Part shown: positions 8,202-63,765 of the stretch, in pieces | Layout of the letters: the number at the start of each line of letters is the position of its first letter | Position numbering within the stretch: the first letter of the stretch is position 1 | Assembly (NCBI RefSeq): GCF_965363235.1 | Contig: NC_134841.1 | Coordinates: 36,733,440-36,797,439, forward strand | Reading direction: 5' to 3' | Source: Mytilus galloprovincialis | Taxonomy: Eukaryota; Mollusca; Bivalvia; Mytilida; Mytilidae | DNA length: 64,000 nt | The notes under the pieces: generated by a model | The model's database searches: none | The model's input: the letters and a program-made list of their open reading frames with translations, nothing else | Told to the model about the DNA's origin: nothing | Translations under genes and position numbers: made by a program

Positions 8202-11200
8202 ATGCCATTATGGAGCTTACTGTTGTCATGGTACAGTATGCTGTTTGTGTGTACAGGTAAATTTGCGTTAAGCCAATAATGTATTTATTCATATTTTATT
8301 TAATATGCTACCTTTATCGCTTTTTCGACAAAAAAACTTTCGACAATTCAAAAATCTGATACACTTTGTGTTTATATTCACTAACATGCAAACAGTATAA
8401 AAACAAATCCTGAACTTCATAAATAATTGATTGGATTCTGTAATTTACTTTCGGTTTCTTCGGTTTAATGGATGTTAGGCTTCAAATGATACATCGACAA
8501 ACTATCTTCACATTCTTAGTCATGATTACTTCATGTATGATATACCCCGAATTATTTTTTCTGAACAACAAAGGGTTTTTTCCATTAATAAAAATGTTTA
8601 ATTTGATATATACTGTGCATGACAAAAACCTTCCAAGTCTTGTTTCAGCGTCCTAAGGGTCCTCCATCTGGTTGCTGTTACCAGGGTAATAAAAAGTTAT
8701 TGTTTTTTTTCTATTGTATCTATGTTTGGAAGATGTACTGCAACTTAAATCTGTAATGGTCAATTTTTAAATTACAGTTTTATATATTTTATAGATGGTT
8801 GTAGGAGACGTTCCGACAATTCAAACAGAATAATCTTCAGAGTAGATAACGAAACCATCCCAGAAAATCATAGACTACATTGTACAGATAATGAGACACA
8901 AGATGTAGCCTGTTTGAATGGAGGATCATGCTTTGCTGTGTATGTAGAAGACAGAACAGTGCAATGTGCGTGAGTATCTATATTATATTTGTATTAAGTT
9001 CATTCCATAAATCGATACAACACCAAATCTAAAATGTAAATGAGAAAGTTTAGTAGAAGATGAAATTAAGATGAACTCGAGTTCAAGTGTGAAATCAGAA
9101 GAAGTTACAGCTCATGAGATAGCATTGATTGTGCACATATTGTGCACATATGAATGTTAATATCAAAAAGAAATTAGCAAAACCTACTTTTACGTCAATT
9201 ACTGTGACTTGACTGTTTGTGTTGCTCTCTACCTTGCTGCTTATTCATAATTCTTACCAATTTGCAATTTGTTTAAAAAAAAATGAGGTTCGTGTTGAAG
9301 TTACAGTACGTTGTTGATAAGTTTCCATGGGATATAACCTAAAACATTATTTTTTTTTGATAACTTAGTCTAGTAAAAATTTATTATATCTCATGAACAC
9401 TTTATAAAAACGTGTTGTTATTGCAGACATATTTTACTGAATATAAAATGTTTTAACTCAAATGATGTCTGATTCTTATGAAATAAAAGACTATCGAACA
9501 ACAATTGTATGAAAGCTTAGTGTATACTTTTGTATAGCCATTCAAAATTACTACCTATTACCTTCCGCATGACAATAACAATAAATTTATATACAAACTG
9601 TTAAACTGATTTTACATAATAACATTGAAATGGAATTAAAGTAGTATAGGATTGTATGCTTTATTTTATCACCTGGCAATTTCACAACTTGAATGTGGTT
9701 TTCAACAGCAATTTATTGACATTTCTGACCAGTTAAACAGTTTGGTTTTATAAAAAAAATGCAATTTGGTCATAATTTTGAATAAGTTGCAACAGGTGGA
9801 GAACTACTAATACAGTCAAGTCAAAGTAATGTAAACCAGTTTAAGGTTTTGTTTCCCAATTAATTGAACTATTGAAATATACAAATGTAATATATGATTG
9901 GTTTTCATTCATATTTCTCTTTCAGATGTTTAACTAAATATATTGGTAGTCAATGCGAAATGATAGATCCTGAAATTATATTTGAGCAATATGAAAGTAA
10001 GCTTTTTGACTAATTGATTTAATTCCAAAGTTTGAGAATAAAATCTACAAACAGCATAAAAAACGAAAAACGAAGAACGAAAAAAAAAAAAACTGTAACA
10101 ATTTATATAAATATATACTGCGTTGTCTTGTCAGTTGTATTCCATAGCAAGACGGTAAAGATCTGAATTATTTATCCAAGCCCAGCAGTAATTTTGTTTT
10201 AAATTCACTTATAAATATAATCAACAATTTCATTGAATTAATTTGTGAACTTTACTGCATTTCAACTTAATAATTGGTTTGTCATTTTTAACGGTTGGAT
10301 TCTAGTGCTATGTTTATTCGACGCCTTGTATACTGTATAATTTTGAAACATGTTATTTTGTTATGATGTTCAACCATTCAGTAATGTATTGCAAGAAACA
10401 AATCGGCAATAATTCATTAAAAAATATAGCAAGCAGTTTCGTATTCATAAACACAAATACACATTTATGTATTTGTTAATGAAACACTGACTAAACGACA
10501 TTAACAGACAAAATACATATAGATGTCGACATACACTCATAATGGGAGGACATTCGTTTGATGTGTTTGAGCTTTAGATTTTCGAATTTGATTAGGGACT
10601 TTCCGTTTTGAATCTTGCTATTTTTACTATTTTACATTTGTTTTTATATTTTTAGCGAGACAAAGAAAAGTCAAAATTGCCTGCATTTCAGGTTTTGGTG
10701 GATTAGGCTACGTTTTACTTATTATTGTTTTAGCAATTGTTTACAAAATATGTACAAAGAAGAGGTAAGTTTGGTTTCTCAATGAAACTTACAAAATACC
10801 TTACTCGTTCTTACTTTCAATAGAAAAACTTTTTTACATCTTCATATATATCCCTGCAGCATTTTCACTTTAAGAAGAACATACCACTGTTAAATCTACT
10901 CATGATCTCGTTAATGGCATAAACTTCATAACGTATGAAACGACAAGACATAGATATAGGAATAACAATTTATAAAAATAAACAATTATAGGTCAACGTA
11001 CGGCCTTCAACACGGAGACGTGGCTCACACCGAACAATAAGCTATCAAGGGCCCCAAAATTACTAGTGTAAAACCATTCAAACGGGAAAACCAACGGTCT
11101 AATCTATATTAAAAACGGGAAACGAGAAAAACGTATAAATTACATAAACAAACGGCAACTACTGTGCATCAGATTCCTGACTTAGGACAGGGGGCAAACA

Positions 11201-15143: not shown

Positions 15144-15214
15144 AAACAGAAATTAACAATGTCGTTAAACTTCGCTTTCTTCTATATTGCAATTGAGAAT
15201 GTTTTCTCACTAAA

Positions 15215-15560
15215 TAGTTCAAAAATTTTGGCTATGTTGAACTCATCTATCCAATTGAACTTGAGATAAAAGATACAACAGATACTGTAAAATCTGGGTC
15301 ATATTTGAATTACATAAAAAAATAACAATAAGGGTCGGTTGAAAACAAAAATTTACGACACAAGAGATTATTTTAGCTTCTTAAGTGTTCACTTTCAATT
15401 TTTCGGTCGCAACAGTCCAGCAACGCCTGCTTATGGAGTATATATCTCTCAGTCGATACGATATTCCAGGGCTTGATTTTCTTATTTTGACTCCTTTGAT
15501 AAAGGTGGTTACTGGTCATTTGGTATAGTTCCTCCCTCATTTAATATGAATATGAAACAC
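15215..15560 (+). pseudogene. Reverse-transcriptase remnant (probably Penelope-like)
   Basis: The + strand encodes ELIYPIELEIKDTTDTVKS and, after several stops and frame changes, an AYGVYIS..IRYSRA-like segment. These are C-terminal blocks of a reverse transcriptase common in bivalve and cnidarian genomes. The same fragment sits at 31125-31460 in the paralogous spacer before gene 3, so it predates the spacer duplication. Assignment to Penelope-like elements is from memory and uncertain; degeneration is plain. Confidence 0.5.
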
Positions 15561-16508
15561 TGCTTTACAATAGATTTTAAAAGTGCTAGTTTACAAGGTA
15601 AAAAATCAATAAGAAGAAATATCAACCTACCTGGACTCCTTTTGATGACTTTTGATCGACCGGTATTGGCACTTCTGGATGCATTCAATGTTTATTTTGT
15701 TTACAAGGGTTGGTTTCAAGAACCTCCACATACTCGAGGCAAAAGCAAAGATCTACATTTTCTTTATAAATATAAACATTTTTCTGAGGAAAAAAATCTC
15801 AAAATAAAACTTTACAGTAGCCAAGTTTATAACACTTATGGAATGTTATTTTGCATTTTCTGTTGTTTAGGTTATACAAATGTATAATTTCATGTCTTTG
15901 GAATCTGTGATTATCTGTGCTGATATCTAACACTTTTACGATAAAGGTTCAAAAGTTGTATGCCCTATATTGGTATATTGGTATGGGACCAGAATTGCCT
16001 TTAAATATTTACCTTCAGAAAGTCGGTACGAAGAATTCTTCTGACATAATAAATTTGTTTTAAATACAATAATTGTTCGACAGATTTGAAGTTTTTGTAC
16101 CAACAATCATCTTTTATATAGGGAATACTTTTAATTAGAAGAAACTATTAAATGATCTAAGAAGCTAGAAGTTTTTATATCATGAATTCTAGTAAAAACG
16201 GAATGATGTTTTAAAATTAGCCAAAGTACAATTTACTGACGGACAGGAGTACATACGACTTTATGAAAGAATGTAAAGATTTGCACTTTTTTTTATCGAA
16301 GAGTATCGAGTTACCTATTTCAGCTTTATTTGTTAATTGGTATTTGAACATTATGAATGATATAATTTTGGTGGGTCACTGAAAAGGTAAATATGCGGGG
16401 TATTTAAAATCGATATTAGGATTAGATAGTCATTGTAGACATTTAAAACTTTTGTTTTGAAATTAATTCAATGTACACGGATCTGTAGATTAAATGATCG
16501 GAATATCC
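15561..16508. other. Duplicated spacer before gene 2, paralogous to 31461-32270
   Basis: Long collinear similarity to the spacer before gene 3, for example TGTAAAGATTTGCACTTTTT and CGAAGAGTATCGAGTTACC in both. The open frame at 15546-15887 is not kept in the paralogue, so I do not call it a gene. Confidence 0.7.
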
Positions 16509-16581
16509 ATGAAAAAATACTTTTTCTTGGAAGTCATGCATGTTCTATTAGAATTGTTCATTAGCTTTTCTGAATGCAATG
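16509..16581 (+). other. Candidate alternative signal-peptide exon (unit 2)
   Basis: ATG at 16509 opens a frame of 24 codons, MKKYFFLEVMHVLLELFISF then SECN, ending with one extra base before a donor-like GTCAGT. Phase 1 is the same as after the signal exons of genes 1, 2, 4 and 5. The paralogous spot at 32296-32341 keeps a hydrophobic frame and has a better donor (GTGAGT). It lies about 9.4 kb before the signal exon of gene 2, most of it later insertions. It may be an alternative first exon, a decayed gene start, or chance. Confidence 0.35.
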
Positions 16582-16872
16582 GTCAGTTATTAGCTGACAT
16601 TTTGTAAGGTAAGTTCAGTAAAAATGAGAGTTTGCGTAGGAACATAAACGTTATGCATCGAGGAATTACACAGAAACAATACATAAATCTTGTCGCGTCG
16701 TCATGTTTAATGTTACTCTGAAAAATCTGGTTTAAAATTACGATAAATACATCAATGATATATCAACAGAAGCTATATTTGTCGGCTTAATGGTATTTTA
16801 TGTTTAGTATAAATTACTGTAAGCAATGAAATATTTATCAAATCCAACCAATAAATAACAATTAGCAGTAAC

Positions 16873-18888: not shown

Positions 18889-21800
18889 ATGCTGGTGGTT
18901 TTTACCACAGGGGTTGTGTATGCGTCTAGTGCAGTGGTAGAGTTAATACTATATCACTGCCGCTGGCTAACTCACTGGTGGGTGAAAAGAAAGTCGAGTG
19001 TGTAAATCTTTCCTGCCAGTACACAGCCTCTACACTATCCAAGACTTCTACAGTGCCTCCTCGCGACAGCACACGGTAACTAGGTTTTATTATCCTAGGC
19101 GTCATCTGTAGAGGATCTCGGAGCAGCAAGGGCCCCAGAGATGCAGTGTGTAGGCCCACCGGCGTGTGGACACGCCCTAGCACTCATCATACTTGCCCCA
19201 GCTATGGGTCAAATAGTATCACTGCCTTGTGATTGGATTCTTGATTCAAAGGCTATGGAAGTAAATCCAGACAGAAAATCCGGGTAGATGGAACTCGATA
19301 GCAACAACAATCGTCTAAGGGATGGAACCCCTACAGAAAAGCTGCCGGTCCTCCGGGCACAGGGGGTTAAGCGTAGGGTTAATCACCCTGCCTTGGAAAA
19401 AAATATTGATTACAGAAACGACTACAATAGCCAATACTCTTTCTCGTCACAGACTGGAGGAAGAACATGTTTTTAATCGAAAACAGTAGATGACGCGAAG
19501 GCCGATGGAGCTGTTTTCAAACAAACTCACCACCAGAATAGGCACATGGATTGTAAGAACACTATACCAAAGTGGTAAATGTGCACAAGTAACAAAAGAG
19601 ATGGATAGATACAAGATCGAAATTCTAGGACTAAGTGAAGTTAGATGGAACACATCAGGCATGACAAATTTGAATACAGGCCACACCATCATATATTCCG
19701 GAAACACCAAACAAAATGACCCACACGAAAAGGGAGTTGGATTTCTAATAACGAAAAGATCTAAAACAGCTTTGCTGGAGTGGAATCCCATCTCACCAAG
19801 AATTATCACAGCACGCTTTAACTCACGTTTCCAAAAAAACACCCTGATACAAGTTTACGCCCCAACCAATGGTGCAGATGACTGTGAAAAGGAAGACTTC
19901 TACCACTCATTACAAACAACTATAGAAAAAGTGCCAAAAAGAGACCTATTGGTACTTATGGGTGACCTAAATGCTAAGGTTGGATCAGAAAGAAAGGGAT
20001 GGGATAGAGAAATCGGCCCCATGGGATAGGAAAAATGAACGAAAACGGTGAACTGTTTGCAGACTTCTGTGCTACCAACAACCTTGTCATAGGAGGAACA
20101 CTCTTCAAACACAAGAACTGCCATAAGGTAACCTGGGTGTCACCAGCAGGAAATGCAGAAAACCAAATAGACCACATAACTATTTCTCAGAGATGGAGGT
20201 CTTCACTGCAAGATGTAAGGGTAAAAAGGGGAGCAGATGCAGCATCAGACCATCATTTAGTTATAGGGTCAATAAAGATGAAACTTTTAGCCCCAAAAAA
20301 ATCAGTTGTCAAAAGAAGAAAGTTCAACGTTGGGAATCTGAAAATACCAAACATAAGAGAAGAATTCCAAATATCTCTTCAAAATAGATTCTCAGCTATA
20401 AGTGACCTGGATATAGAGGAGAATGATATTAACAACACATGGGAGCAGACAAAAAATGTAATACTAGAAACATGTGAGGAAACATTAGGATACATGCAGT
20501 ATAACCTCAAAAACTGGATGTCAGATAATACATGGGTTAAGGTTGAAGAACGGAGAAAAGCCAAAGAAAAAGTCTTAAATGCCACCACAAGACAACAAAA
20601 AAGACAAACACAAGACCTTTATAGAGAGAAAGACAAAGAAGTAAGGAGAACTGTAAACAGGATAAAAGAAACTATGTTGAACAATTAGCACAAGAAGCAG
20701 AAATTGCATGTAGCAAAGGAGACATAAAATCTCTCTACAACACAACTAAACAACTAAGTGGAAGAAGATCGAACTCAAATGCTACAGTTAAAGATAAAAA
20801 TGGCAATGTGATAACAAAAATTGAAGAGCAATTAAAACGATGGAAAGATCATTTTGAAGAAGTGCTAAACAGACCCCCTCCAACAGACCCACCTAACATT
20901 GAAGGGAGACAGGTCCTGAACATCAAGACAGGAGATATAACTAAAACAGAGGTAAACACTGCAATAAGACAACTAAAGAATGGGAAAGCAGGAGGGATCG
21001 ACAACATACCCCCTGAAGCTATAAAGGCAATGGATAACATATGTATTGATAAACTTCACCAACTACTTAACAAAATATGGAATGACGAACATATACCTGA
21101 TGACTGGCGTAAAGGAATCCTCATTAAAGTACCAAAGAAAGGCGACAAATCAATCTGTAGCAACTGGAGAGGAATTATTTTGCTTTCCATTCCTAGCAAA
21201 GTCTTATGTCACATCATCCTACAGAGGTTAAAGAAAGAAGTTGATAAGTTACTAAGAGACTAACAGGCCGGTTTCAGACAAGAGAGATCATGCATTGACC
21301 AAATTGCCACATTAAGAATCATCATCGAGCAAACCATTGAATGGCAGACATCCCTATACTTAACATTTCTAGATTTCGAGAGGGCCTTTGATAGTATAGA
21401 CCATCAAGTACTATGGAACATCCTTAGACATTATGGAATACCCGAAAAAATCATAACCGTCATCCAACAGCTCTATGACGGTTTTACATGTCAAGTGAGC
21501 CATGCAGAGACTCTGAAAGATCCATTTCCTGTATCAACGGGTGTCAGACAAGGATGTTTACTTTCCCCTCTCCTTTTTCTAATAGTGATAGATTGGGTGA
21601 GTCGGAAATCGTACAATACTCCATTAGGTATTAAATGGACATTACAGTCATGCCTTGAAGACCTGGACTTTGCAGACGATATCTGCCAGCTTTCCCATCG
21701 CCATGAAGACTCACAAAAGCAAGCAACCAACCTTGAAACAACTGCAAAACAAGTAGGACTTTACATAAATGCAAAAAAGACAAAATCTATGAGGGTAAAC

Positions 21801-22463
21801 ACAAACCAACTTAACAAAACCAAAGTGAGAGATGCTGAAGTTGAAGATGTCAATGAGTTTACATATCTTGGAAGTGTCATAAGTACATCAGGTGGGACAG
21901 ATGAAGACATCCAATCAAGAAAAAGAAAAGCTCAACAAGCCTTTGCTATCCTAAAACCAGTCTGGAGAAGCAAAGCGCTCAGAACAAACACCAAAATTAG
22001 GATCTTCAATTCAAATGTAAAATCTATTCTTCTTTATGGGTCAGAAACTTGGAGACTGACAGCTGCATCTACAAAAACATTACAAGTTTTCATGAACAGA
22101 TGCCTAAGAAACATCATTGGAATCAAGTGGCCAAACACAATCAGCAACAAAGAGTTATGGAAAAGGACAAGGCAAGAGCCAATAGAAAGAACGATAACAA
22201 CACGAAGATGGAAATGGATTGGACACACTCTTCGTAAAAGCAACACAAATGTAACAAGACAGGCACTAGATTGGAATCCTCAGGGCCATCGTAAAAGAGG
22301 GCGACCAAAATCCACCTGGCGCAGAGATTTAACATCTGATCTTCAGAAAATTGGGAAAACATGGGGTGAAGCAAAGAAACTGGCAAAGGACAGGAAAAGA
22401 TGGAAAGCTACAGTGGTCGCCCTATGTCCCCCATGGGACGAAGTGGATTAAGTCAAGTAAGTC
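18889..22463 (+). mobile_element. Full-length RTE-type LINE (LINE 1)
   Basis: A 3575-bp non-LTR retrotransposon bounded by a perfect 14-bp target-site duplication. It has a GC-richer 5' leader of about 600 bp, one long coding region (endonuclease then reverse transcriptase), and a very short 3' end of AAGTCAAGTAAGTC. Short AAGT-type tails and no poly(A) fit RTE-clade elements. A similar tail closes the minus-strand LINE at 40868. The intact duplication and few lesions imply a fairly recent insertion. Confidence 0.85.
19490..22451 (+). pseudogene. LINE 1 endonuclease-reverse transcriptase, lightly broken
   Basis: Order: an apurinic-type endonuclease with IGTWIVRTLYQSGK at the start, EVRW, MGDLNAKVG and SDHHLV; a linker; then the reverse transcriptase with NGKAGGIDNIPPEAIK, NWRGI, AGFRQERSCIDQ, LDFERAFDSID, RQGCLLSPLLF and the catalytic FADD; and a C-terminal RRWKWIGH...RGRPKSTWRR block. 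Reading moves from one frame to another near 20025-20035 and again near 20670-20690. One in-frame stop sits at 21261-21263, where a Gln codon is expected before AGFRQ. Otherwise the frame is open to the stop at 22449-22451. The endonuclease type annotated as craniofacial-development-protein-2-like in many genomes comes from RTE elements, supporting the clade. Confidence 0.85.
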
Positions 22464-25963: not shown

Positions 25964-28900
25964 ATGTTATTAGTGAGCCTATCGTTTTCATGCTTTAGTC
26001 TGCTGTATGTGTATACAGGTAAATTTACATAAGAAACTTTTTTTTATTCAAAGTAAGAACTTATTTATATCGCTTTTTCGACAACAAAACATTCAATGAA
26101 TTAAATAAAAAATATAGGCTCTTTTTCATTCACAATAATAAAAATACTTTATTCCGAAAACCAAAACAAATAAAATCTGATAGATAAGATGTTAATAAAT
26201 ATAAACAAATGTATTGTACAAACGACGTAGATGTGCTAATATCCATAATACATCTCAAAAAGATGAACACAAATAGTGAATGCAAAACGAAATTCTAATG
26301 GCGATGGTATCCTTTTTTAAATAACTGACTAAGCTTAGCAATTTATGTATTGTTGAACAGCAGCAGACCATTCAATAACGATAACTAACTTTTGAGTAGT
26401 TTAATGTTTGTATAGAACTGTATTTTTAGAATAGATATATGTGTGAAAATATTTTTGTTTAGTGCTATAACCGAATCACACAATGAAAAAAAATTAAACA
26501 CACAAATTATATCACACTCCGAAATATTTACAACACTTGTCAAAATGTATCAGCTTGAAAGCGAATCAGCAAACATATCCAAATCAATTTTACCGACTTA
26601 GAAATGGAAGAAAAAGCTACAGTGTTCATCTCATGAATTTAGACTATTAACCAAGAAATAGGTTACGATACAATGAAAGAACGAAAATATGCATGATCAA
26701 GCCGTTCTCATCAAAATCATGTTTAGACAATGTTCGAAAAGAAAAGAGATGTACAAAAAATAAAACACTAAGATTTAAAAAGTTGTCAATAAGTAGCTTT
26801 TCCTTGAAAAAGTTTACGCTTTAATAAACAAACATTCTGGTGTTGAACCAAAACAAATGGTGTTCATCCGATGAAAAATTTAAATTATTATTTGAAGTCG
26901 TCATCGTAAAGCAATTTTGTACTATATTTACCATGTAGAAGAACTCTGCTTGAATCACACTTTTTTTTCTTTTTTTTTTTATGAAAATAATAATGGATGA
27001 CAAAATGTGTACAAAATATATAGCACATAATCCCTATAAATATATCGGTCCCAGTTCGACATAAGTAACTGAGACAGTAAAGTCTTTATTATGGATATTC
27101 ATTTGATATACAAATTCAGTAACATGTGAGACAACTTGTTAAAAGTGTAAAGATTGATTGAAAGTGTTTAATATCTTTACAAGGCTAGTGGTATATAACG
27201 ATTTTCGTATTTTCATAGAAGTGAATAGCCAAATGATTCCTGAAAATCATAGACTTAGTTGTTCAGATAATGAGACAAAAACGGTAGCCTGTTTAAATGG
27301 AGGATCTTGCTTTGCCGTATATGTAGAAGACAGAACAGTGCAATGTGCGTGAGTATCTTTAATAAAAAATATTATTTGAGCGTCACTGATGACTCTTTTG
27401 TAGACGAAACGCGCGTCTGGCGTATCAGATTATAAGCCAGGTATTTTGGAAAACTATATACTTGAATAAAATGCTTTTATGAAACAATAACAATACAGAA
27501 TACAACGTGGAACCAAGGATTTGTATAATAAGACTTACTATACAAATCCTTGGTGGAACTAACAAATAACCAGCAAACAAAACAAAGCAAAGCATGATAT
27601 TCGTGTGTACGGAAACCATTAATGGGCAAGGATATCTATCTATTGCCAAATAGTATGTAAAACGAAATCCTAAATATTTTTTTTTCAAGTTTAATGTCAA
27701 ATGTATCAATATATTATCTTCGTTTTCTGATTGTTGTTTATTTTCTAGATGTTATAGTAAATATATAGGAAGGCGCTGTGAAATGATAGACCCAGAAATA
27801 ATATTTGATGACAAAGAAAGTAAGTCTTCTGTTCAACCACTAAGTTATGACCTGCTGGCAAAGATATTTCGAAGCGAAGCCGTTTATATATATTACTGTT
27901 AAATACTTTTCTAGACTTAAGCCGATTAAAATCTCTTCGTTTTGATAATTTTTATTTTTTATTCTCTTCTATCCCTAATTATTTTTGCCTTTGATCTTCT
28001 GAAATGAGTGCTTCTGGTAAGATTTATGTAGTGCAACCACTCGTGTAGATGCGTTATCAATAAGATAATTAATTAAATCTGGTATGTTAAATAGTTTATG
28101 TTTAGCTTTTGGATGCAATTATGTTCCTTAGTGTAATAAAAATTTTACTAAATGGTTGAAGAGCATGATTTTCATTGATTCGGTATAACATTGTGTTATA
28201 AACATTTAAGCATGTTTCCATGAAACAGTACATCAGGATAAATATGTGAGCGCAAAAGCATTTAATCGGATTGTAAACAGTTAATTATGAATAAAACAGA
28301 ATGTGAAATATATGCCGATGAAACAGCAACTCATCAGTCAATATTTTTAATCAATTTTAAAACTATCTTAAAAGGTCTGTTAATAGAAAATAAAGAAAAT
28401 GTAAAAGATATGATATGAACAGTATTTGTCTTTTCAGCGGGACAAAAAGAAGTCGCAATTGGATTAATCTCAGGTTTTGCAGCATCAATTTTCCTATTTA
28501 TTGCTTTTGTGATAATTGGCTGCGTTTGGTTTATAAAACAAAAGTAAGTTTGTAAAAAGAAGGTAAGTTTCGGCAACACGGTCTACCGAAGTGTGAACCA
28601 AGGAAACTTATTCAAATGAACAGAAGTTGTTGTTTGTTTATGTAATTTATATGTTTTTCTCGTTTTTTTTATTTTATATATATTAGACCGTTGGTTTTCC
28701 CGTTTGAATGGTTTTACACTAGTTATTTTGGGGCCCTTTATAGCTTGTTGTTCGGTGTGAGCCAAGGCTCCGTGTTGAAGACCGTACATTGACCTATAAT
28801 GGTTAACTTTGTTTAATTGTTATTTGGATGGAGAGTTGTCTCATTGGCACTCACACCACATCTTCCTATATTCAATCATATTTAAGTATTTGAAGATATC

Positions 28901-32960: not shown

Positions 32961-33419
32961 GTGTTTTAATTAATGATAACAGTATGTACTTTAAAATCAT
33001 AAAAAGAACGAATTAAATTATGGAATTTCGCAATCAAGCCTCATTCATGAATTTGCTTGTTTTTCTGACCTGAATCCTGACCGTTCGCGTTCCTACGTTT
33101 GTGATTCAAGCCTATAAAAGACTAGAAGCTTGAATGGTGCAAAAATTCTTCAGAGATATCAGGCTTATAAATCAACGATTAATGAAAATACATCATTTCT
33201 AGTAACTATAAATATTGTGTAACTTTTGCGTTTTTTTTCGGTCTGCATGGAAATATGTACACTTTTGAATCGGAGCCTTGATCATTCCTTATTTTCTTAT
33301 AAATGTTTTAACTTTTTCAGGAAAGCAACATTTTATTATCATGCTTTTGTCTGCTGTATGAGTATACAGGTAAATTTATAACTTCGTACTTTATTCGGCC
33401 TTTTTAAACATTGTTTTAT

Positions 33420-34163: not shown

Positions 34164-34854
34164 AATTCATGACAAAATGTTTAGTATCCGTGTAAGTCAA
34201 ATGTTGTATAACGATTTCCGTATATTTATAGAAGTAAATAGCCAATTGATTCCAGAAAATCATAGACTAAAATGTACAGATAACGAAACACAAACATTAG
34301 CCTGTTTGAATGGAGGAACGTGCTTTACAGTATATGTAGAAGACAGGATAGTGCAATGTGCATGAGTATTATATGAGTTTTTATGCTATAATGAAAACAC
34401 AACAATACATAATACAACGTGGTATTATCAAACCATCAGCAAATCGAACAAAGCAAAACGTAAAAAAATACCATCAATTGGCAAATGATTTTAGGCTATT
34501 GGCAAACATGTTTGAAATAGAAATAGTAAATCCTTATTCATTGTAAAAAAAGTATTGTCTTTTAAGACTAATGGGATATTTTCGTCGTGTTCAGAATCAT
34601 GTTTATTTTTAAGATGTTTTAGTAAATATATAGGCAAGCAATGTGAAATGATAGACCCAGATTTATTTTTGATGACAATAAAAGTAAGCCTTGTATTTAG
34701 TTTCTGGTTGATTTTGTTTAACTAATCTGAACTTTTAGAAGATTATCTAAAAACAGCTGGTTGTTTGTGATTAACATTTGTATGTAATTGTTATCATCAA
34801 TGTATTCACATTTTAATACATTTTGTTGTTAAATATTGTGTTATAAACATCTAG

Positions 34855-46296: not shown

Positions 46297-46427
46297 ATTA
46301 CAGTTATGTTTGTATTGATATGTATTTAGAGGACATTGTGAATGTATATAGATGGAATTGTGGTATATTTTTGTAATTTGTAAAATGTTTACAAGATATT
46401 AAATGTTGTTTCGCTGAGAAAATAAGA

Positions 46428-49904: not shown

Positions 49905-52900
49905 ATGTTGTTGGTACGAATTCTGCTTACTTGTTTTATTTTGATAGAATACTGTACAGGTAAAGTCACTTTACGTTTATTTTTACTAAAATGATTATGC
50001 ATATTACTATCGATGCAGCTACTAATAAGTTAATACTTGACTTTTTTACAGCAAGATGTGTTATTGAAAAGTTTTGCAATGAGTTTTTTTTATATTGTAT
50101 ACCTCACTCTAAGCATTTTAGTATTAGAACGAAACCAACTTAAATGATGGCCTTTCATTTCTGTCAACGAGTTGATACAATCGTTTAATGATTATCACCG
50201 AAGAACCATGATCTCGTATACACTTACATTGTTTGTTTCTATATTTACTATCAATATTTGCATATGATTACATCTGATTATTAACATATGGATTCGAAGT
50301 GGTTAAGGCAGGCCTTTGCTATACCTTATAGATCAATTCTTGTTAGTTGGTTTTATTTCGAGTTTGACGAATGACAGGTGCCACTACTGGGACAAAAGCC
50401 AACTACACTTCCAGAGCACCTGCTCTCACCCTAGTTTTGATCAGTTTTAAGTGTTTTATGTTGTGTTTTGTGGACTTGTTTATCTTTTCGTCGTTTGATT
50501 TGTCGACCTTCGACGTATTAGTTTTGAATGTCCCATTAGTAGCTTCTGTCTCGTTTGTAGCTAGTTAGCTATGAAACCATGGTTCTGTAACTTTTGGGCT
50601 TTTTCACATTTCTTGATTGGTGTAAGAAAGATATTTCTCCTCACCAGTGAAATATCTGTTCTAGGTAATGATTAGTAGAAATTCAATTATGACGACTAAT
50701 GTTCTTGGTTTCTTATGAATTTTTCAATTTGATATCACGAAAAAGGCGACCATTCCTTAAGACGTCACATATAAAAACACAATTTTCTGCAAATCTGTGA
50801 AAAGGAAGGGAAAAAAATGTCATAACAGAAACAGATTCAATCACTACAACTCGTGTGAACGATTTTTCTTCATTCTCAACATTAAATCAAATGTATTAAA
50901 AAAAACTCGACAAGCATCACGCTTCAAATACTTAAATTTAACTGTGTCGGGAAGAGAAATATCGAAACATAATTGTTGCAGTCTTGGAATTTATATTTAA
51001 TCCACCATTTTCTACATAAGGAAAAGCCTTACCAAGTTGTTTTCCATTTGTTTCATGTGTTGAAGCTTTTGATATTGCAATTTGATATAGGACTTTCCGT
51101 TTTCAATTTTCAATGGCGTTCGGTATTTTTGTTATCATACTTTTTTTCTTTAAAGAAACTAGGGACATGGTTTACTTTTCATTTGGCTAAGAATTTTATC
51201 AACTTATTTTAGAGTGTTTTTAGGGGGTGATATTTTGACATTTCTACGAATGAGTCACTATTTTATTTTTACGTCTTATTCATACACAAGGTCAAAATGC
51301 TCCACATGATGAAGTTAAAATGGCAGTTAATCACAGACTGAAATGTACAGAAAATGAAACACAAACCATATCATGTCGGAACGGAGGGACATGTTTCGCA
51401 ACTTTCATAGAAGATAGATTTGTTCGCTGTGCGTAAGTATATTAACGTACAAATACGAAAATGCGGCGTTCATTTTCCAGTGTCCGTAAAAATCATTAAT
51501 GAGCATAATAAATGTTTTATTTTATTTTGTGTCAATAAAGAAATTGTTCCTGTTGCTCATTTTATTGTGTCGTGACGCAGTATATGTTTTTCTTGAAAGA
51601 ATTTATTCATTTTAATACAACGTTACTGTAAACTTGATGTCTTTTAGAAATCGCAAAATGCAATTTATTTGTTTTTATTTTAAAATTTCTTTGTTGTACA
51701 TACCTTGATTTTTTGTTTCAGATGTGTAAAAAAATATACTGGTAAATTTTGCGAAATGATAGATATCAATATCATTTTTAAAAGTAAGTTTCATTAATCA
51801 TCTATATATATATATCAAAATGAGGAAACGTGGTATAAATGCTTATGAGACGACTATCATCAAAATATAAATTGGAGTAGAAGAAATCAATTATAGACCC
51901 CCGTGTTATCAGCAACAATACAAGAACGTCCATATCTTATATCGGCTAAAAGCAACAATGCAAGAACGTCCATATCTTATATCGGCACAAAAAGGCCCCG
52001 GGCTACATTAAAAAGATGAACCCATTCTAACAAAAAAAAAAAAAAAAACGAATGGCCTACATAACACGAAAAAACAAATATGACATGCATGAATGAACAA
52101 CAAGCACTGTACTACAGTTTCCTGGGACAGCCACAAAACAATTGAGCGCGCAACTCTGCGAACTAGGGACAGGCTGTAAGAACACAAAATAAGGATAAAC
52201 TGTAAACAATCAGTTGCAATCGGCTTTACTTAAAAGATCAACACAAGGAGCAAAAACAGCTAACATAAAAACAATAGCCACCAGTGAAATATGATTGATG
52301 GATTGTTTGTGTTTTAACGCCATTTTTAAGGGCCACATTTGAGCTATTTCGTGGCGGGCAGTTTTTATTAGTGGAGGAATCCGGAGTGCCCGGAGAAAAC
52401 AACTGACCTTCGATTTGGAAAACTGACAACTCTAGTCAAGGTTGGAGTCGTGTTCACCCACACGAGAGGGGTTCGAACTCTCAATATTAGTGTTGACTGG
52501 CTAGTGATTACAGTAGGAATAACATTGTGCAATGTCAAAATAAAAGTAAACAGTATCGGCAGGATGTAGAATGTTAAGTTCACATGACTGTAAATGTATC
52601 ATTTTATAGCAGTATATATTAAGTTATGTTTAAATTTTTTTTTAAACAAAATCATTGTTAAAAGCAATATTGAAATTTTCATTACTGTTTTAAATTGATT
52701 GAAAATTTCGAATTATGACGGGTATAAATATATTTGTGGCTTTCGATTATATTTTTACTCTTTGGTCAGGTTTTTGTTGTTTCTTTGACACATTATGTAT
52801 AATCATGAACTCCAGGAATTACCTGATAATGAAATTAATTGACAGTTTATGTTGGTTGTTTGTTTGCGTACCGTCAAATGAAATTATCTATGCCTATTCT

Positions 52901-53665
52901 GGACGAAAAAACATTTTACATTTACTACATGTTCTGTAAGGTAGTTATATCCGAAAAAAAGTTTAGGAAATTGAATAGCCACCAACATGATTATATGTTG
53001 CCAGTGGCGGATCCATTTTCATAAGTTGGGGCCCACTGACTGACCTAAGAGGGGCCCGCTCCAGTCACGCTTCAGTGATTCCCTATATAAGCAACCAAAT
53101 TTTTTTCCAAAAAGGGGGGCCCGGGCTCCCTGGGTTCCTCCTAAATCCGCCTCTGGTTGCAATTGGAATTGGGCAGAAATTTATCCATGCAACTTAGCAA
53201 CTTAGGACCCTCAGAGTGTTGTTGCAAGGGTTCTTTATCGTGCATAGAGCAGCGTAGGCGGTCTACACAACGCATTTCATTAATTACTATTCGAACCGTA
53301 CGTGGCTTCGTATTTAAACAAACGGACGTCCTACTTTAGCAAGGGTTTAATGCCGGTCGAATGAAGAAAGGGGTGGCCATATTTCTATACACCAGTTTTT
53401 GAGGAAATAAATTTTAAAATCATCAGTAAGTGTTTCAATCACACTTGAGATAATACATATATATTAGTCCGTTTGATATGCACACTTAATCTATTTCACA
53501 GGAGAACGAGAAGAGAAAACAACGAATGCAGGATTGATTGCTGGCATTATAACCATTGTGTTACTCTTTACTGTAGTCATAATTATATTAATCTGCAAAA
53601 AGAAACATAAGAGAGAGACAGAATTACCAGATATAAAACCGGAGGAAGAAATTTTAAAGGTGTAA
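49905..53665 (+). CDS. Gene 4: single-EGF membrane protein, ErbB-ligand-like (140 aa, 4 exons)
   Basis: Coding exons are 49905-49959, 51291-51432, 51722-51783 and 53502-53665, phases 1, 2, 1. Signal peptide 1-18; short lead; EGF cysteines at 37, 47, 53, 65, 67 and 76 (same spacing as gene 1) with NET sequon at 40-42; membrane helix about 97-117; then KKKHKR and an acidic tail ending EEEILKV. Phe replaces the Arg before Cys6. This is the most diverged working copy. The final AAG is followed by GTGTAA, so a donor in phase 0 after EILK is possible and would parallel the orphan exon at 38522. The simple reading, a stop at 53663-53665 in the membrane exon, is preferred because no tail exon was found. 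AATAAA at 54031 may be its polyadenylation signal. Confidence 0.85.
50365..50575 (+). repeat. Dispersed repeat family B, diverged copy, in intron 1 of gene 4
   Basis: CTTCCAGAGCACCTGCTCTC, TTTATGTTGTGTTTTGTGG, GAATGTCCCATTAGTAGC. The 65-residue frame is repeat-derived. Confidence 0.6.
50995..51160 (-). repeat. Dispersed repeat family E in intron 1 of gene 4
   Basis: CCACCATTTTCTACATAAGG, then GATATAGGACTTTCCG and TTTTCAATTTTCAATGGCG. Confidence 0.65.
51830..52220. repeat. Dispersed repeat remnants with a 43-bp tandem duplication in intron 3 of gene 4
   Basis: AAGAACGTCCATATCTTATA occurs twice about 42 bases apart. Flanks carry a GAGACGACTATCA end and an A-rich run, similar in build to family D inverted. 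Confidence 0.5.
52285..52525 (+). repeat. SINE-like dispersed repeat with tRNA-type B box
   Basis: GGAGGAATCCGGAGTGCCCG, GAGAAAACAACTGACCTTCG, CACACGAGAGGGGTTCGAAC and GGCTAGTGATTACAGTAGG. GGTTCGAACTC fits a pol III B box. I recognise the type from bivalve genomes. It is not a functional tRNA. Confidence 0.6.
53001..53156. mobile_element. MITE of CCAGNGGCGGAT type in intron 3 of gene 4
   Basis: The left end CCAGTGGCGGAT and the reversed right end CCAGAGGCGGAT form the inverted ends. TTG flanks both sides (52998-53000, 53157-53159), an apparent 3-bp target duplication. Interior GGGGCCC-rich, no coding. Confidence 0.75.
53190..53345. repeat. Dispersed repeat fragment
   Basis: CTCAGAGTGTTGTTGCAAGG, TCTTTATCGTGCATAGAGC and GGCGGTCTACACAACG, GC-richer than the surroundings. 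I recall the type from other bivalve loci, but cannot class it. Confidence 0.4.
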
Positions 53666-57468: not shown

Positions 57469-60400
57469 ATGCAGCTCATTCAAATATTCACATATTGGAC
57501 ATGTTGGATGTTGTTTTGGATGTGTGCAGGTATATATTATTTCTTTATATATCAAATGTTACAAAAAAAAGAAGTAAAATCACAAAAATACTGAACTCCG
57601 AGGAAAATTCAAAACGGAAAGTCCCTAATCAAATTGCAAACCCAAAAGCACAAACACATCACAAGAATGGAAAACAACTGTCATATGCCTGACTTGGTAC
57701 AGGCATTTTCTTATGTAGAAAATGGTGAATAAAACCTGGTTTTATAACTAGCAGAACCTCTCACTTGTATGACAGTCACATGAAATTCCATTATATTGAC
57801 AACGATGTGTGAACAAAACAAACAGACTTGATAGGTAAAAATGTAAAAAAAATATAGCAATCAACATTGTGTTATAATCTTAATCACTAAAAAACATACA
57901 AAATGTAACAGAGAAGCACAAAACAAAATGGCATATGAAACACATTCAAGAGGCACCGAAAAGATTAAGAGCAGAGATGATTAACATTTCGGAATAGGAA
58001 CTTTAGTAAAAAAATATATAAAACATGACTAAAACCTATAAGATAAAAAGCCTGGTAAAAAGATAAATTATATAAATGGCAATACTAGAAGATACAATTT
58101 CCTGTTCTGAATTGCAACTTAATTTGAGGCTCGCATAAAAAAGTTCTTATCAGATTTATATACATGTACTAAGAATAACAAATTGAAAGGAAAAGGGGAA
58201 ATACAGATTTTTTTTACTTTTAGTAATGCAAAGTAGGTGTATAAATGTTCTTGTCAATTGTATTTGTTTAATAGGTTATATTACAAAAACGGGCATATGA
58301 AAACAATCTGAATTGTTTCAATTCCAAACGAGGGTAGAGTTCCCTTTAAATCTATCTTATTGTACTGTATAAAAACGTAAGGACAAAGATAAATTTAAAA
58401 AAAATTGTTGTACAAACAAATATAAAAACTAGTTGCTTTCGTAGGTTTTGTCTGTTAAATTGAAGGCAGGTGTATTAATTAAAATAAAAAACAGTGGGCA
58501 TCATTTTGAAATGGCTAACGACTATATGTATATAGCTAGTTTAACTGGCTGACGTCCATGATTTAAAATACAACAACTAGTTTTGAAAGAAATTACAACT
58601 GAGAATTTGTCGATATCTGTCAATTTTGTCAAATGATATGAATTAAATAAGGAAGATATGTACATAAGGTTTGTACCAGTAAAGTAGCAGTCAAACCCCA
58701 TGAATTTAAAAGATTTACTATAGCATATATAATATGCAGCACTTACAAAAATATGTAATTAAACACCCTTTTAACACGTGGAAGTATCATAGGGCAACAC
58801 CAGTCTTTTGAAATCACAATCCTACACACTTTAAAATTCGCCGAACCAGCTAAACTCTAAACAGGTCAGATAAAGGTTTATGAATAACGTACAAAAGCTA
58901 GTATCATGGAAAAAGAAGTTCAGTCTACAATGTATAATAAATGTAAAAACACAAGTACAAACAAACCAGTTAACATTGCTGTAGCAAAGAATTATGTTAG
59001 CGCTTACAGAAAAGTTTATCATACTAAAAGTACATAACCTGATAAGAAATCTAGACGTTCTACATGTACACTTTCATATCGTTGTCAATTTCGTTCAGTT
59101 ACGTCATAAGCAGTTCACAAACTTGATCAATATCAAGAATAAATCCGTACTGAATTTAAATGGTGAATAAACTAAAGAAACATTTTTTCCTGTTTCAAAC
59201 TATGATTCTGCAAATTGGTTGTGTATATAGAAGTGACAATGAATGTATTGTGGTAAAATTTACGCAGTTTCTGTTATTAAACCAAAAAGAAAGAACATTT
59301 TAGCTAGCATCACAATTGAAATAATCTTAAAAAGGGTAGTTTTAAATACAAGGTTTACTTAATTTCGTTCAGGCGAAATGATCCTTCTTCCACAATTAAA
59401 AATCAAATTTCTGAAAAGATTTTTTTACGTTTTCATTTATTATGTTATAATTTTTGATTTTTTTTTATATTTTAGAGGGTCGTAATAATGATAACAAACA
59501 TACTCAATTTAAAATTTCTGAGCACAGAAAAGAAAATACAACACTCCTAGACAACACCACTGACCAAAGAAGAGAATATACAACACATTCCGACAAAACT
59601 ACTGTCAAAAGAAAAGAATATACAACACTTCTGTTCCAAATAACTGACCAAAGAAAAGAACTCACAACTCTTCCAGACAAAACAACTGGTCAAAGACGAG
59701 AATATACAACACTTCCAGACAATCACAGATTAAGTTGTACAAAAAATGAAACAGAGACAGTCGCTTGCTTCAACGGAGGATCGTGCCTTGCAACAGATGT
59801 AGGATTTAGAATAATACGATGCGCGTGAGTAGAAATAACCAACTTAACTGTTCGTTTTCAGACATGCTTTTGCTTTTGGTATTTTTCTTGACAAACTTAT
59901 CTTATTAGTTATTGTTTGGAGATGGGGTGTGATTGACAAAATGACGTATAGTATCAACAATGCAGTGTCTAAATGAACCTGTTGTAGTAGTGTAACCGTA
60001 AACAGAAGAAAAAAATGTGCGGTCATTTTTAGTCTCGGTGTACAAGTAGCGAACCACGCCAAATAGACACTTAAAAAAATAGACCTTACAGTAAAAGTAA
60101 TAATTTACAAGGACAAACAAAAGAATGCTTTTACACATTTTTAAGTTGATAAACAATGCCAATATCATTTACAAAGACGAACAAAAGATTGCTATAACAC
60201 ATTTTTAAGTTGATAAACAAACCCAGTACAAAGAATCTATACTTCAAGACCATTGTGTATTATTTGTGAAGTTTATACGGGATATCTATCAGCAAGGTCT
60301 TGTTATCTTCCGCTGAAGTTTCTTTTAGGGAAAAGACGAGACCTTCTTTTTGATATACCCTTGGTACATCCACTTTCTGAACAGACACTGGTGAAGTTTT

Positions 60401-63400
60401 ATAATGTCTGAGTATACGTAGCAGCTGCAAACTCATGAATACCGAATGAGTTGGGAAATGTATATCCCATTTGCAGGTGAAGTTGGTACATGAGGCAGAG
60501 GAAGCCGTGTTTGTTGATTGGATTCCCTGATCTTCTTGTTTGTGACATGTGTCTCAATTAACTCCGAATCATATATTTATTAAAAGAGGTTGGCAAGGAG
60601 AGGCGCACAGTTCTATCCCATAGGAATACCGACAATTTGTTTAAAAACATCTATTACCTCCAAATTCACCAAATATGTTGTCAACAAGAAACTCCAGCAT
60701 ATTGATAACTCTCCAACGTTGTTCATTATATGTCTTCAAGTTGACTGCATTCATGTATATAAGAAAAAAAGATCTTGTAAAAAAATTGCCTCCATGTATA
60801 TGAATGCTCCTTGTTTTATTTCAGATGTACTTTTAAATATACTGGTGACCGATGCGAAATGATAAACCTAGAAATACTTTTTGCAAGTAAGCACCACCGT
60901 GCAATAAATAAATGAATAAAAAAATATTGTTGAAGTCATTGGCAATGCAGTGCATATGATTTTATCAGCTGTTTTAACATATCCTGTAAAGGTCTTAACG
61001 AAAAAAATCAACCACGTTACTTTGCGTCATCTTACTAAATATGTTCAGGCTCATATCCTTAAAATTACTTTCTTTTTCTTGAAGGCGTCCTTATGTTTAT
61101 GATCATGATTGTCAGATCTAAGCTATAATAGATATCTGCATTCGTACTTGTTTTTGCTTGACTAGTGTTTTTAGTCTACAAAAAGGATGATGTTCATAAC
61201 AGCTTTGATAACGACATTGAATGGCGTACAGACGTTTTAATTTGGTTGGGTAGTATCGATTGTCTTTTGATATCAACAATAATAGCCTTACTGAAAATAA
61301 TGGCATGATGAGTTAAGCTGACTATGTGGTATGGGCTTTGCTCATCGTCTATGGCCGTAAGGTGACATAATAACTTATAATTTCTATGTCATTTAGTCTT
61401 CTGTGGAGAGTTGTCACATTGGCAATCATACAATTCAAACAAGAAAACAAGAAAACTAACGGCCTTATTTATGTTCAAGTCACCATTTTTATCAGTTAAT
61501 TGCTTTATTACACAAATTCAGCGACAACATTTAGAAAAATCTTGCTATAAATGGAAACCTTTAATTCTGATGGGATGACTGTGTTTTCTTAAAATTCTTA
61601 AATATTACGCGAACATTTAATTTATCTAAAACGATGTTTCCTCAAGTTTAAGATGATCATTTATCGTTACATGAAAAATGCAGACACGAAATTTACGATT
61701 CTTTTAAAAACAGTTTTAATTTATTAGACCATTATGGAATATTTGTATCTCAGATGACCACAGTTTACTGATATGTTTCGCTCACAATTCCATCCTATTT
61801 CCTATCGAAAGCAACTATTCATCGAATCTTGACTTGCATTAATATAAGTAACATGACGGATGCCACTAGTGATGCAAAAACTGCTTATCCTGGTATTACA
61901 TATAGGAAGTATAGGAAGGTTCCTGTTTAACTTTTGGTGAAGTGTTTTTGACTGTAACATTTGTTTGTCTTTTCGCCTTTTTTTTTTTAACTTGTCTCTT
62001 TTATTGAATTAACGGTTTTGATTGGGTATCTTCTCCTCTCCATTTCTTACTTCTATTATTTGCTCATAACCGATTCCCTGAGCTACGATTTAAGCCCTGT
62101 TATCATGCCGATATACAGTCAAAATAAAAATTGTCTTATCCAATGCAAATTAGGTTTGATCTTGACCGAAACACACCGAAAATCATAAAGTTACTTGTAT
62201 CGAGTGTTGTCTGCTCCAGCTTTTGGTGGGAGATATTGCATGAATATACTGAACGCAAACAAATATTGTTAGCATAGTGACAAAGTAAACCGTAGTACTA
62301 CCATGTTTGCATCACATTTCTTGTTAGATCAAAATAAGACATAATAGTAATGGACATCAAAAGAGAAATACTTTTGGAGTTATATACTAGAACCTAGTAG
62401 GTTGTATACTAGAACCTAGTAGAGGTAAATAAAGAGAATAGCCTTGATTTCTGACTAGAAGACGCAAAAACACAAACACACAAAAACATCGAAGATGTAT
62501 TAGTCGAAAGGCTCTGTTGACCAATAATTGGTGTTAGAAATATACCTGGTGTATGTATATGCTACTAGTACATCAAAAGCTTTTTAGATTCCCTTCAAAA
62601 GAATTTATTTTTCTAACCGGAACCAATGTTTGATGGGATGTGATCGTTCTGAATGCTCATTCTTCTATTTAAGCGAGCACAGTGCCATGATAACATCGTT
62701 GTTTGTTAAAAAATTTGACTTATCAGTCTCTGCATTATAATTTCAATATATAATAAACCCTGACACAATAGAAAACAGGATTAAAATTTTATACTTGTGG
62801 CAGACGCGCGTTTCGTTTACAAAAGACTCATTAGTGGCACTCGAATAAAAAAAAGGTTAAAAAGGCCAAATAAAGTACGAAGTTGAAGAGCATAGATGAT
62901 TCAAAATTCATAAAAATTTTGCCAAATACAGCTAACTTTAAGGTAATCTATTCCTGAGGTAGGAAAGCCTTAGTATTTCAAATATTCAAAGTTTTGTAAA
63001 CAGTTGATTTTATAATACTTATTATAAAACTTAAAACAAACAGTTCACATCAGCTTACATCGATTAAAAACAAAATACATATTTTTTTTTCTTTCAAATG
63101 ATATCATTTGTCAAATGTTACTATATTCTTTAGGTAAACACGTATTTTTTCAGTGAATAAAGAAAAGAAAGAAGTTAGAACTGGTCTTGTTTCCGGATTT
63201 ATTGCTTTAATAGCATTATTATTGCTTGCAGGGTTGTTATTAGCTTTTAATATATTTTTCAAAGTAAAAAGGTGAGTTAGTGAATTTATTTTACTTAATA
63301 TAAGTGCTTTGTTACTAAAAGTACCGAGTAAACATTATCAACCCAATCTGGACATATATATTTGTTTTTATTACAAAAAAAGAAAAAAAAAAAAAAAGAA

Positions 63401-63765
63401 AAACACTTTACAACAAGAGGAGTACAACGTCCCAATACCTAACGGACTTTAAAACAAATTTATACATTTATATATATAGCTGTATGGGATGTTGACGAAA
63501 CCCTCAGACGGTGAAACCGGGATTGTTCTTGTGAAAAACATTTTTTCAGCTTATTCATAACTATTTTTTACAATAATACCTTGAAAAGATAAAAAAATCA
63601 ATGTCCTTTTTTTTTTTTTTTTATTAAGTTTTCATTTTTAGATAAAATACCGAAAACCATCAATTTTGATTACCAGTTCTTATGTGCAATACTACAATCC
63701 ATATTATTTATTGTAGAGTTAACACATATGAAGAGATATACTCAAGAGGTCGGTTATTTATATGA
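57469..63765 (+). CDS. Gene 5: EGF membrane protein with Thr-rich repeat stalk, ErbB-ligand-like (212 aa, 5 exons)
   Basis: Coding exons are 57469-57529, 59476-59824, 60825-60886, 63154-63271 and, less surely, 63717-63765; phases 1, 2, 1, 2. An acceptor at 57449-57450 precedes the start. Signal peptide 1-20. Residues 38-93 are four 14-residue repeats (RKE-N/Y-TTLLDNTTDQ type), then a fifth partial unit runs into PDNHRL, the conserved lead of the EGF domain. EGF cysteines at 108, 118, 124, 136, 138 and 147; NET sequon at 111-113; KYTGDRC end with Arg before Cys6. Membrane helix about 168-191, then basic FFKVKR. The tail NTYEEIYSRGRLFI has two tyrosines in a YEEIY pattern that could be phosphorylated (inference). 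Thr and Asn-X-Thr sites in the repeats suggest a glycosylated stalk. The real last exon may lie beyond the window. Confidence 0.8.
57575..57895. repeat. Dispersed repeat family E, full copy, in intron 1 of gene 5
   Basis: Starts TACTGAACTCCGAGGA, then GGAAAGTCCCTAATCAAA, CAACTGTCATATGCCTGAC, TTCTTATGTAGAAAATGG, and ends at an AACATTGTGTTATAA block. It is the fullest copy in the window. Confidence 0.8.
59526..59720 (+). repeat. In-frame 42-bp coding minisatellite in gene 5
   Basis: Four 42-bp units (59526-59693) and a partial fifth, with the recurring core AAAGAAAATACAACACT or GAGAATATACAACACTTCC. Length is a multiple of three, so copy-number change keeps the EGF domain in frame. Confidence 0.9.
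60104..60221. repeat. 64-bp tandem duplication in intron 2 of gene 5
   Basis: CACATTTTTAAGTTGATAAA and ATTTACAARGACRAACAAAA each occur twice, 64 bases apart. Confidence 0.75.
60245..60720 (-). pseudogene. Reverse-transcriptase remnant in intron 2 of gene 5, antisense
   Basis: The minus strand encodes MLEFLVDNIFGEFGG, then a degenerate GIPMG..NCAPLLANLF block, and later NGIYISQLIRYS. Blocks are in the right order for the same element as at 15215 and 31125. Many stops. Probably Penelope-like (uncertain). Confidence 0.5.
61316..61440 (+). repeat. Dispersed repeat family D fragment in intron 3 of gene 5
   Basis: TGTGGTATGGGCTTTGCTCA, GGCCGTAAGGTGACAT, GTGGAGAGTTGTCACATTGG. Confidence 0.75.
61855..62040 (+). 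repeat. Dispersed repeat family B, diverged copy, in intron 3 of gene 5
   Basis: GACGGATGCCACTAGTGATG and TTTGTTTGTCTTTTCGCC resemble the gene 4 intron copy (GACAGGTGCCACTACTGGG). Confidence 0.5.
62384..62423 (+). repeat. 20-bp tandem duplication
   Basis: TATACTAGAACCTAGTAG occurs twice in direct succession; each unit contains the near-palindrome CTAGAACCTAG. Confidence 0.8.
62755..62895 (-). repeat. Dispersed repeat family A, inverted, in intron 3 of gene 5
   Basis: GCAGACGCGCGTTTCG, CAAAAGACTCATTAGTGGC and AAGTACGAAGTTGAAGAGCA. Confidence 0.8.

What the first reader, a model, noticed from the sequence alone, without database searches (positions are those of the whole stretch)
8202..63765. 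Tandem array of ErbB-ligand-like EGF membrane genes in a mussel
Four assembled genes, one decayed copy and one orphan 3' part share the same plan: signal peptide, one EGF domain with C-x9-C-x5-C-x11-C-x-C-x8-C spacing, a CEMI(D/N) segment, a membrane helix and a short tail. Lead sequences and tails differ strongly while the EGF core is kept. I know of no description of such an expansion of EGF-type ligands in bivalves. It could be a diversifying signalling or recognition family.
Basis: partly seen in the sequence, partly recalled or inferred. Interest (0 to 1): 0.85.

Follow-up and report, generated by a model that had tools for sequence, protein, structure and literature searches.

The report
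Tandem EGF membrane-ligand gene array
A run of five related genes, one of them dead, seems to code for small membrane proteins with one EGF domain that are built like the growth signals of the EGF-receptor pathway, although some residues those signals use to grip the receptor are missing; it looks like a local gene-family expansion in an animal genome.

Summary
I find five units on the + strand. A, B and D can be assembled from signal exon to membrane helix. E has everything except a signal exon that I could find. C is a pseudogene with four lesions. I saw no separate orphan 3' part. Cysteine spacing is identical in A, B, D and E (9-5-11-1-8), and splice phases agree.

In all five copies the EGF coding sequence is split between cysteines 4 and 5, and in the four with a helix it lies 22-28 residues before it. 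These are the two marks Stein and Staros (2006) proposed for ErbB ligands. In solved-structure searches A and B fall with TGF-alpha, Spitz and neuregulin; D and E are ambiguous.

Against a plain ErbB-ligand label, the aromatic residue before cysteine 2 is absent in 5 of 5 copies, and the arginine before cysteine 6 is kept in 2 of 4 live copies. The EGF core shows purifying, not diversifying, selection.

Best reading: a lineage-specific tandem expansion of membrane-tethered ErbB-ligand-like genes with eroded receptor contacts. "Mussel" could not be tested. Expression and binding are unknown.

The parts
8202..8256 (+). Copy A, signal-peptide exon (18 codons + 1 nt)
   Evidence: ATG at 8202, donor CAG|GTAAAT, phase 1
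8795..8969 (+). Copy A, lead + EGF N-half (C1-C4)
9926..9996 (+). Copy A, EGF C-half (C5, C6, CEMID; Gln before C6)
10656..10764 (+). Copy A, membrane-helix exon; in-frame TAA follows KKR if the donor is not used
25964..26018 (+). Copy B, signal-peptide exon
27219..27348 (+). Copy B, lead + EGF N-half
27749..27819 (+). Copy B, EGF C-half (Arg before C6)
28438..28543 (+). Copy B, membrane-helix exon; in-frame TAA if the donor is not used
33330..33369 (+). Copy C, remnant of signal exon: ATG is ATT and 15 bases are missing relative to B
34232..34361 (+). Copy C, EGF N-half exon, intact frame but donor GT replaced by AT
34614..34683 (+). Copy C, EGF C-half, 70 bases against 71 in B (one-base deletion after CEMIDP); no helix exon found
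49905..49959 (+). Copy D, signal-peptide exon
51291..51432 (+). Copy D, lead + EGF N-half
51722..51783 (+). Copy D, EGF C-half (Phe before C6)
53502..53665 (+). Copy D, membrane helix plus 23-residue tail to stop TAA (complete 140-aa reading)
59476..59824 (+). Copy E, long lead with about five 14-residue Thr-rich repeats + EGF N-half; no signal exon found upstream
60825..60886 (+). Copy E, EGF C-half (Arg before C6)
63154..63271 (+). Copy E, membrane-helix exon
63717..63765 (+). Copy E, candidate last exon, tail RVNTYEEIYSRGRLFI then TGA
   Evidence: acceptor TTGTAG, phase fits; a second AG two bases on would give an immediate stop

Best explanation
The array is a lineage-specific tandem expansion of EGF-type ErbB (EGF-receptor) ligand-like genes. 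Each live copy encodes a type I membrane precursor: signal peptide (not found for E), variable lead, one EGF module 22-28 residues outside a single helix, and a short tail. Most likely the EGF module is displayed at the cell surface or released by cleavage at or near the membrane, as Spitz and TGF-alpha are, and acts on the animal's EGFR. Copies have diverged in lead, tail and receptor-contact residues: B and E look closest to agonists, while A and D may be weaker ligands, modulators or have other partners. Shown: exon anatomy, splice phases, EGF cysteines, membrane helix, purifying selection on the core. Inferred: expression, shedding, receptor binding, signalling.
For: Intron between C4 and C5 in all five copies, phase 2 (donor destroyed in C), and EGF close to the helix in 4 of 4 copies with a helix: the two marks that Stein and Staros use to tell ErbB ligands from other EGF modules (PMC1618406). 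Single-EGF architecture, the EGF-type ligand class of PMC4914847. Best 12 of 58 solved-structure sequences (E up to 10) for B: 11 ErbB ligands (TGF-alpha, Spitz, neuregulin/heregulin, betacellulin) and one ant peptide. Best 12 of 35 (E up to 0.1) for A: again 11 ErbB ligands, one of them an EGF/TGF-alpha chimera, and the ant peptide. NG86 dN/dS of the 48-codon core 0.09-0.44 in 10 of 10 pairs, two of them near saturation at silent sites. Excess of synonymous change p = 2.6e-7 to 0.022 in the 6 pairs of live copies, 4 of 6 below a Bonferroni cut of 0.0083.
Against: The residue before C2, Tyr or Phe across known ligands except tomoregulin-2 of two teleosts (PMC1618406), is Ala in A, B, C and E and Ser in D: 0 of 5. 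The Arg before C6 is present only in B and E (2 of 4 live copies; A Gln, D Phe, pseudogene C Gln). The C1-C2 loop is two residues longer than the x7 I recall for human EGF, and carries an N-glycosylation sequon (NET) in all five copies. For D and E, Notch, uPA and PVFP-5 chains rank above or among the ErbB ligands; for the four-copy profile three Notch chains and uPA rank just above Spitz. The Pfam EGF model matches A, B and D below its cut-off and E not at all. Meprins, mucins and IMPG2 share the splice mark without proven ligand action, and Drosophila Spitz, Keren and Gurken lack it, so the mark is neither sufficient nor necessary.
Confidence: 0.52

Rival explanations
1. Membrane EGF proteins that share the ErbB-ligand gene structure but do not signal through EGFR, like the EGF modules of membrane mucins, IMPG2 or tomoregulins: surface glycoproteins for adhesion, protection or recognition.
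For: No aromatic residue before C2 in 5 of 5 copies and no Arg before C6 in 2 of 4 live copies. Stein and Staros list mucins, meprins and IMPG2 with the same splice mark, several with a changed or variable residue before C6. Copy E's Thr-rich repeat lead resembles a mucin-type stalk (resemblance by eye).
Against: A and B fall with ErbB ligands in structure-sequence searches. B and E keep the Arg. No other domain of such proteins was matched in the four joined readings (Pfam, E up to 1).
Confidence: 0.26
2. Antagonists or decoys of EGFR signalling, or a set of agonist and antagonist ligands, with A and D as low-affinity competitors and B and E as agonists.
For: The contact Arg is split across copies, 2 of 4, while the fold core stays under purifying selection.
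Against: No functional or expression data; loss of contacts may equally mean loss of EGFR binding.
Confidence: 0.12
3. Relics: a decaying local family with few or no working members.
For: C is dead by four lesions; E lacks a visible signal exon; transposable elements lie between the copies.
Against: A, B, D and E keep frames, splice sites and all six cysteines; the core shows purifying selection.
Confidence: 0.07
4. The EGF module belongs to the Notch/fibropellin type of repeat.
For: Notch chains top the lists for D and E and for the four-copy profile.
Against: Those top ranks are whole-chain sums over 3-5 domains. The best single Notch domain among the chains shown in detail scores 19.2 bits (profile, 3 chains), 17.3 (E, 5 chains) and 17.7 (D, 3 chains), against Spitz 25.4, neuregulin-1 24.2 and neuregulin-1 21.5 in single-module chains. 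uPA scores as high as these (25.5, 24.0, 24.3), and for D one single-repeat Notch chain (21.9) slightly beats neuregulin-1. There is one module per protein, next to a helix.
Confidence: 0.03

Closest known systems
EGF-type ErbB ligands (TGF-alpha, EGF, betacellulin; Spitz in insects)
   Same: Single EGF module near one helix, type I precursor, intron between C4 and C5; top structure-sequence matches of A and B.
   Different: No aromatic residue before C2; Arg before C6 in only 2 of 4 live copies; x9 C1-C2 loop with a conserved NET sequon; five copies in tandem.
Neuregulin EGF module
   Same: Best-scoring single-module ErbB ligand for E (24.2 bits) and for D (21.5 bits).
   Different: No immunoglobulin domain matched, which PMC4914847 uses to define the NRG type.
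Tomoregulins (TMEFF), membrane mucins, IMPG2, meprins
   Same: C4-C5 splice mark, EGF near helix, and in several of them a changed or variable residue before C6.
   Different: None of those proteins' other domains was matched (their domain make-up is partly recalled).
Planarian and other lineage-specific EGF-ligand expansions (8 EGF-type in Schmidtea mediterranea)
   Same: Multiplication of EGF-type ligands, ascribed there to gene duplication.
   Different: There a genome-wide set; here five copies in one head-to-tail array. That survey listed one ligand each for Lottia gigantea and Crassostrea gigas.

Membership tests
[quoted passage not shown] absent in Drosophila Spitz, Keren, Gurken) | tested here: met
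   5 of 5 copies, phase 2; the donor is destroyed in pseudogene C. Predicted from sequence, no transcripts seen
ErbB ligands | EGF module close to a transmembrane helix | tested here: met
   C6 to helix start 22-28 residues in 4 of 4 copies with a helix exon
ErbB ligands | Six-cysteine EGF module with CxC and x8 last loop (recalled) | tested here: met
   9-5-11-1-8 in 4 of 4 live copies; first loop longer than the x7 of human EGF (recalled)
ErbB ligands | Arg immediately before C6 (in all verified ligands except tomoregulins, PMC1618406) | tested here: inconclusive
   B, E yes; A Gln, D Phe, pseudogene C Gln. Met for B and E, not met for A and D
ErbB ligands | Tyr or Phe immediately before C2, contacting the receptor (PMC1618406) | tested here: not met
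   Ala x4, Ser x1 in 5 copies; no aromatic residue in the C1-C2 loop
ErbB ligands | Sequence similarity to ErbB ligands above other EGF modules | tested here: inconclusive
   A and B yes; D, E and the four-copy profile mixed
ErbB ligands | Binds and activates an EGFR/ErbB receptor | not testable with these tools
   needs protein and the native receptor
NRG-type ErbB ligands | Immunoglobulin domain with EGF and a helix | tested here: not met
   no Ig match at E up to 1 in four joined readings, though E's first exon is missing
Notch/fibropellin-type EGF repeats | Tandem EGF repeats in one protein (recalled) | tested here: not met
   one module per copy

The most novel reading that the evidence does not exclude
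A bivalve-specific branch of ErbB-ligand descent in which tandem copies kept the fold and membrane display but lost or traded the receptor-contact residues and carry a conserved glycan site in the first loop. The set would then act as mixed agonists and antagonists, or as a recognition family with a new partner.
Probability: 0.27. Interest if true: 0.65.

Novelty: new variant of a known kind. Interest (0 to 1): 0.45.

Why it matters
The 2016 survey found a single EGF-family ligand in each of two molluscs (PMC4914847), and oyster EGFR is reported to have a ligand-binding domain poorly similar to the human one (PMC4883820). A tandem set of ligand-like genes with varied contact residues would be a natural test of how EGFR and its ligands co-evolve. 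If the source is a mollusc, it would also give concrete candidates for growth, wound-healing or recognition signals.

Tried and rejected
Searches for relatives with the EGF N-half alignment in viral contigs (22 pattern matches) and genome contigs (20) gave none confirmed; those collections hold viral and bacterial/archaeal contigs. No whole genome is held. A text search for a repeat motif to identify the species found nothing; the motif occurs 5 times in the window, and I only recall it as common in bivalves. Rfam and tRNA scans found nothing. The signal exon of E was sought with a donor scan (which also missed A's exon), relaxed scans and an HMM; the best guess (57469-57529) has no homology and is not claimed. 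The last exons of A and B were not found; the reading may simply stop just after the helix (in-frame TAA over the donor). A DNA tree of the five cores did not resolve, 0 of 2 inner branches supported. A rhomboid-type site at the helix start (L-x-x-G in B, D, E, not A) was compared only by eye with passages of PMC2941825; hydrophobic helices match easily, so it is not counted.

Full report
What is there. The + strand of the window holds five copies of a gene built from the same exons. HMMs made from the exons find five EGF N-halves, five EGF C-halves, four membrane-helix exons and three signal exons, each far above the next hit in six frames of the 64 kb; the fourth signal-exon hit (i-E 0.0029) is the remnant in copy C (built from these exons, so the gap is what counts). 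Copy A spans 8202-10764, B 25964-28543, C 33330-34683, D 49905-53665, E 59476-63765.

Exon plan. Signal exon of 18 codons plus one base with the same ACAG|GTAAA end in A, B and D; lead plus EGF C1-C4; EGF C5-C6 plus CEMI(D/N); membrane helix and tail. Junction phases are 1, 2, 1 wherever both sides are present. D reads through to a stop as 140 residues. A, B and E have a consensus-like donor just after the helix, and would otherwise stop at once. For E a last exon at 63717-63765 fits and gives RVNTYEEIYSRGRLFI; a second AG two bases on would give an immediate stop instead.

Three, not four, copies run from a start codon to the helix; E lacks a convincing signal exon in the window, though the scan missed A's known exon too. 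I see no orphan 3' part: each of the four helix exons lies behind its own EGF exons. C is dead by four lesions: start ATG to ATT, a 15-base loss in the signal exon, the donor GT to AT after the N-half, and a one-base deletion in the C-half. No helix exon was found for it.

What kind of EGF module. Spacing is 9-5-11-1-8 in A, B, D and E. In all five copies the coding sequence is split between C4 and C5, and in the four with a helix the module lies 22-28 residues before it. Stein and Staros (PMC1618406; abstract and passages seen) proposed these two marks for ErbB ligands. They note that some mucins, meprins and IMPG2 also have them, and that Drosophila Spitz, Keren and Gurken lack the splice site. 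Against solved-structure sequences, 11 of the best 12 of 58 for B (E up to 10) and 11 of the best 12 of 35 for A (E up to 0.1) are ErbB ligands; the remaining one in both is an ant peptide named U-myrmeciitoxin. For E the best 12 of the 60 shown (64 found) are 6 Notch, 3 neuregulin, and 1 each of PVFP-5, uPA and an EGF/TGF-alpha chimera. For D the best 12 of 40 are 9 Notch and 1 each of PVFP-5, uPA and neuregulin. With the four-copy profile the order is three Notch chains, uPA (25.5 bits), Spitz (25.4), Spitz, the chimera (24.6) (60 shown of 66). The top Notch ranks are sums over several domains: single Notch domains in the chains shown in detail reach at most 19.2 (profile), 17.3 (E) and 17.7 (D) bits, against 24.2 (E) and 21.5 (D) for neuregulin-1. 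But one single-repeat Notch chain scores 21.9 for D, and uPA scores 24.0 (E) and 24.3 (D). So D stays undecided. In Pfam the EGF model matches A, B and D below its cut-off and does not match E.

Receptor contacts. The same paper reports Arg before C6 in all verified ligands except tomoregulins, and Tyr or Phe before C2 across ligands except in tomoregulin-2 of two teleosts. Here the Arg is in B and E only, and the aromatic residue in none of five. A NET sequon in the C1-C2 loop is present in all five. This lowers the claim that the copies are ordinary ErbB ligands; it does not touch the claim that they are built like them.

Selection. NG86 on the 48-codon core gives dN/dS 0.09-0.44 in 10 of 10 pairs; B-D and C-D are near saturation at silent sites (dS 2.96 and 2.02), and four of the ten pairs involve pseudogene C. 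Approximate Fisher tests on rounded counts for the six pairs of live copies give p 2.6e-7 to 0.022, 4 of 6 below 0.0083; pairs with C were not tested. Counts are small and the pairs are not independent. Signal exons seem to diverge faster (A-B dN 0.33, dS 0.28; A-D silent sites saturated; 18 codons). Nothing here supports diversifying selection on the EGF core; the leads were not tested. Residues before NHRL are 42, 27 and 31 (signal included) in A, B and D and at least 81 in E, whose lead holds about 4.9 copies of a 42-base repeat. A, B and C are close (85% core identity per pair); D and E are at 66-72% to the others. The tree is unresolved.

Context and novelty. In the 2016 survey of EGFR ligands, Lottia gigantea and Crassostrea gigas had one ligand each, while Schmidtea mediterranea had eight EGF-type ones (PMC4914847; section 6, figures-and-tables section and passages read). 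None of the rows listed by eight searches showed a bivalve array. These cover open-licence papers only, and each showed 10-20 rows of 23 to 6,852 papers. Passages of two listed pearl-oyster papers, PMC11270918 and PMC6434816, speak of ErbB/EGFR signalling but describe no such ligand genes. Oyster EGFR is reported with a ligand-binding part poorly similar to the human one (PMC4883820, passages).

Mechanism. Most likely these are tethered precursors whose EGF module acts at the surface or after cleavage near the membrane on the animal's EGFR, with copies tuned differently. Shown: anatomy, phases, fold signature, constraint. Inferred: expression, cleavage, binding, signalling. Membrane EGF proteins without EGFR action are the main rival.

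Noticed in passing
window 41421-46534: A young-looking DIRS-superfamily retrotransposon of Ngaro/PAT type (type name recalled): zinc-knuckle ORF, reverse transcriptase, RNase H and a tyrosine-recombinase-like ORF (just below the Pfam cut-off), with split direct repeats 41421-41673 = 46044-46296 (99%) and 45941-46047 = 46428-46534 (100%), between copies C and D.
   Followed up: partly
window 19490-22451: A LINE-type element with an endonuclease-like ORF (below the Pfam cut-off), reverse transcriptase and DUF6451 over several frames; fragments with related domains on the - strand at 40877-41440 and 46983-47456.
   Followed up: partly
window 44671-44838: About six tandem copies of a 28-base unit inside the DIRS-like element.
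   Followed up: no
window 950, 15052, 27403, 33447, 62801: Five copies of a short motif GACGAAACGCGCGTCTG (3 exact, 2 with one mismatch), 0 expected by chance, part of a dispersed repeat.
   Followed up: partly
window 15202-16754 and 31102-32515: Two stretches aligned in four pieces of about 79-93% identity, upstream of copies B and C; perhaps a dispersed element or part of the duplication unit.
   Followed up: no
window 33771-33969 and 33967-34165: A 199-base tandem duplication, 98% identical, directly upstream of the EGF exon of pseudogene C.
   Followed up: no
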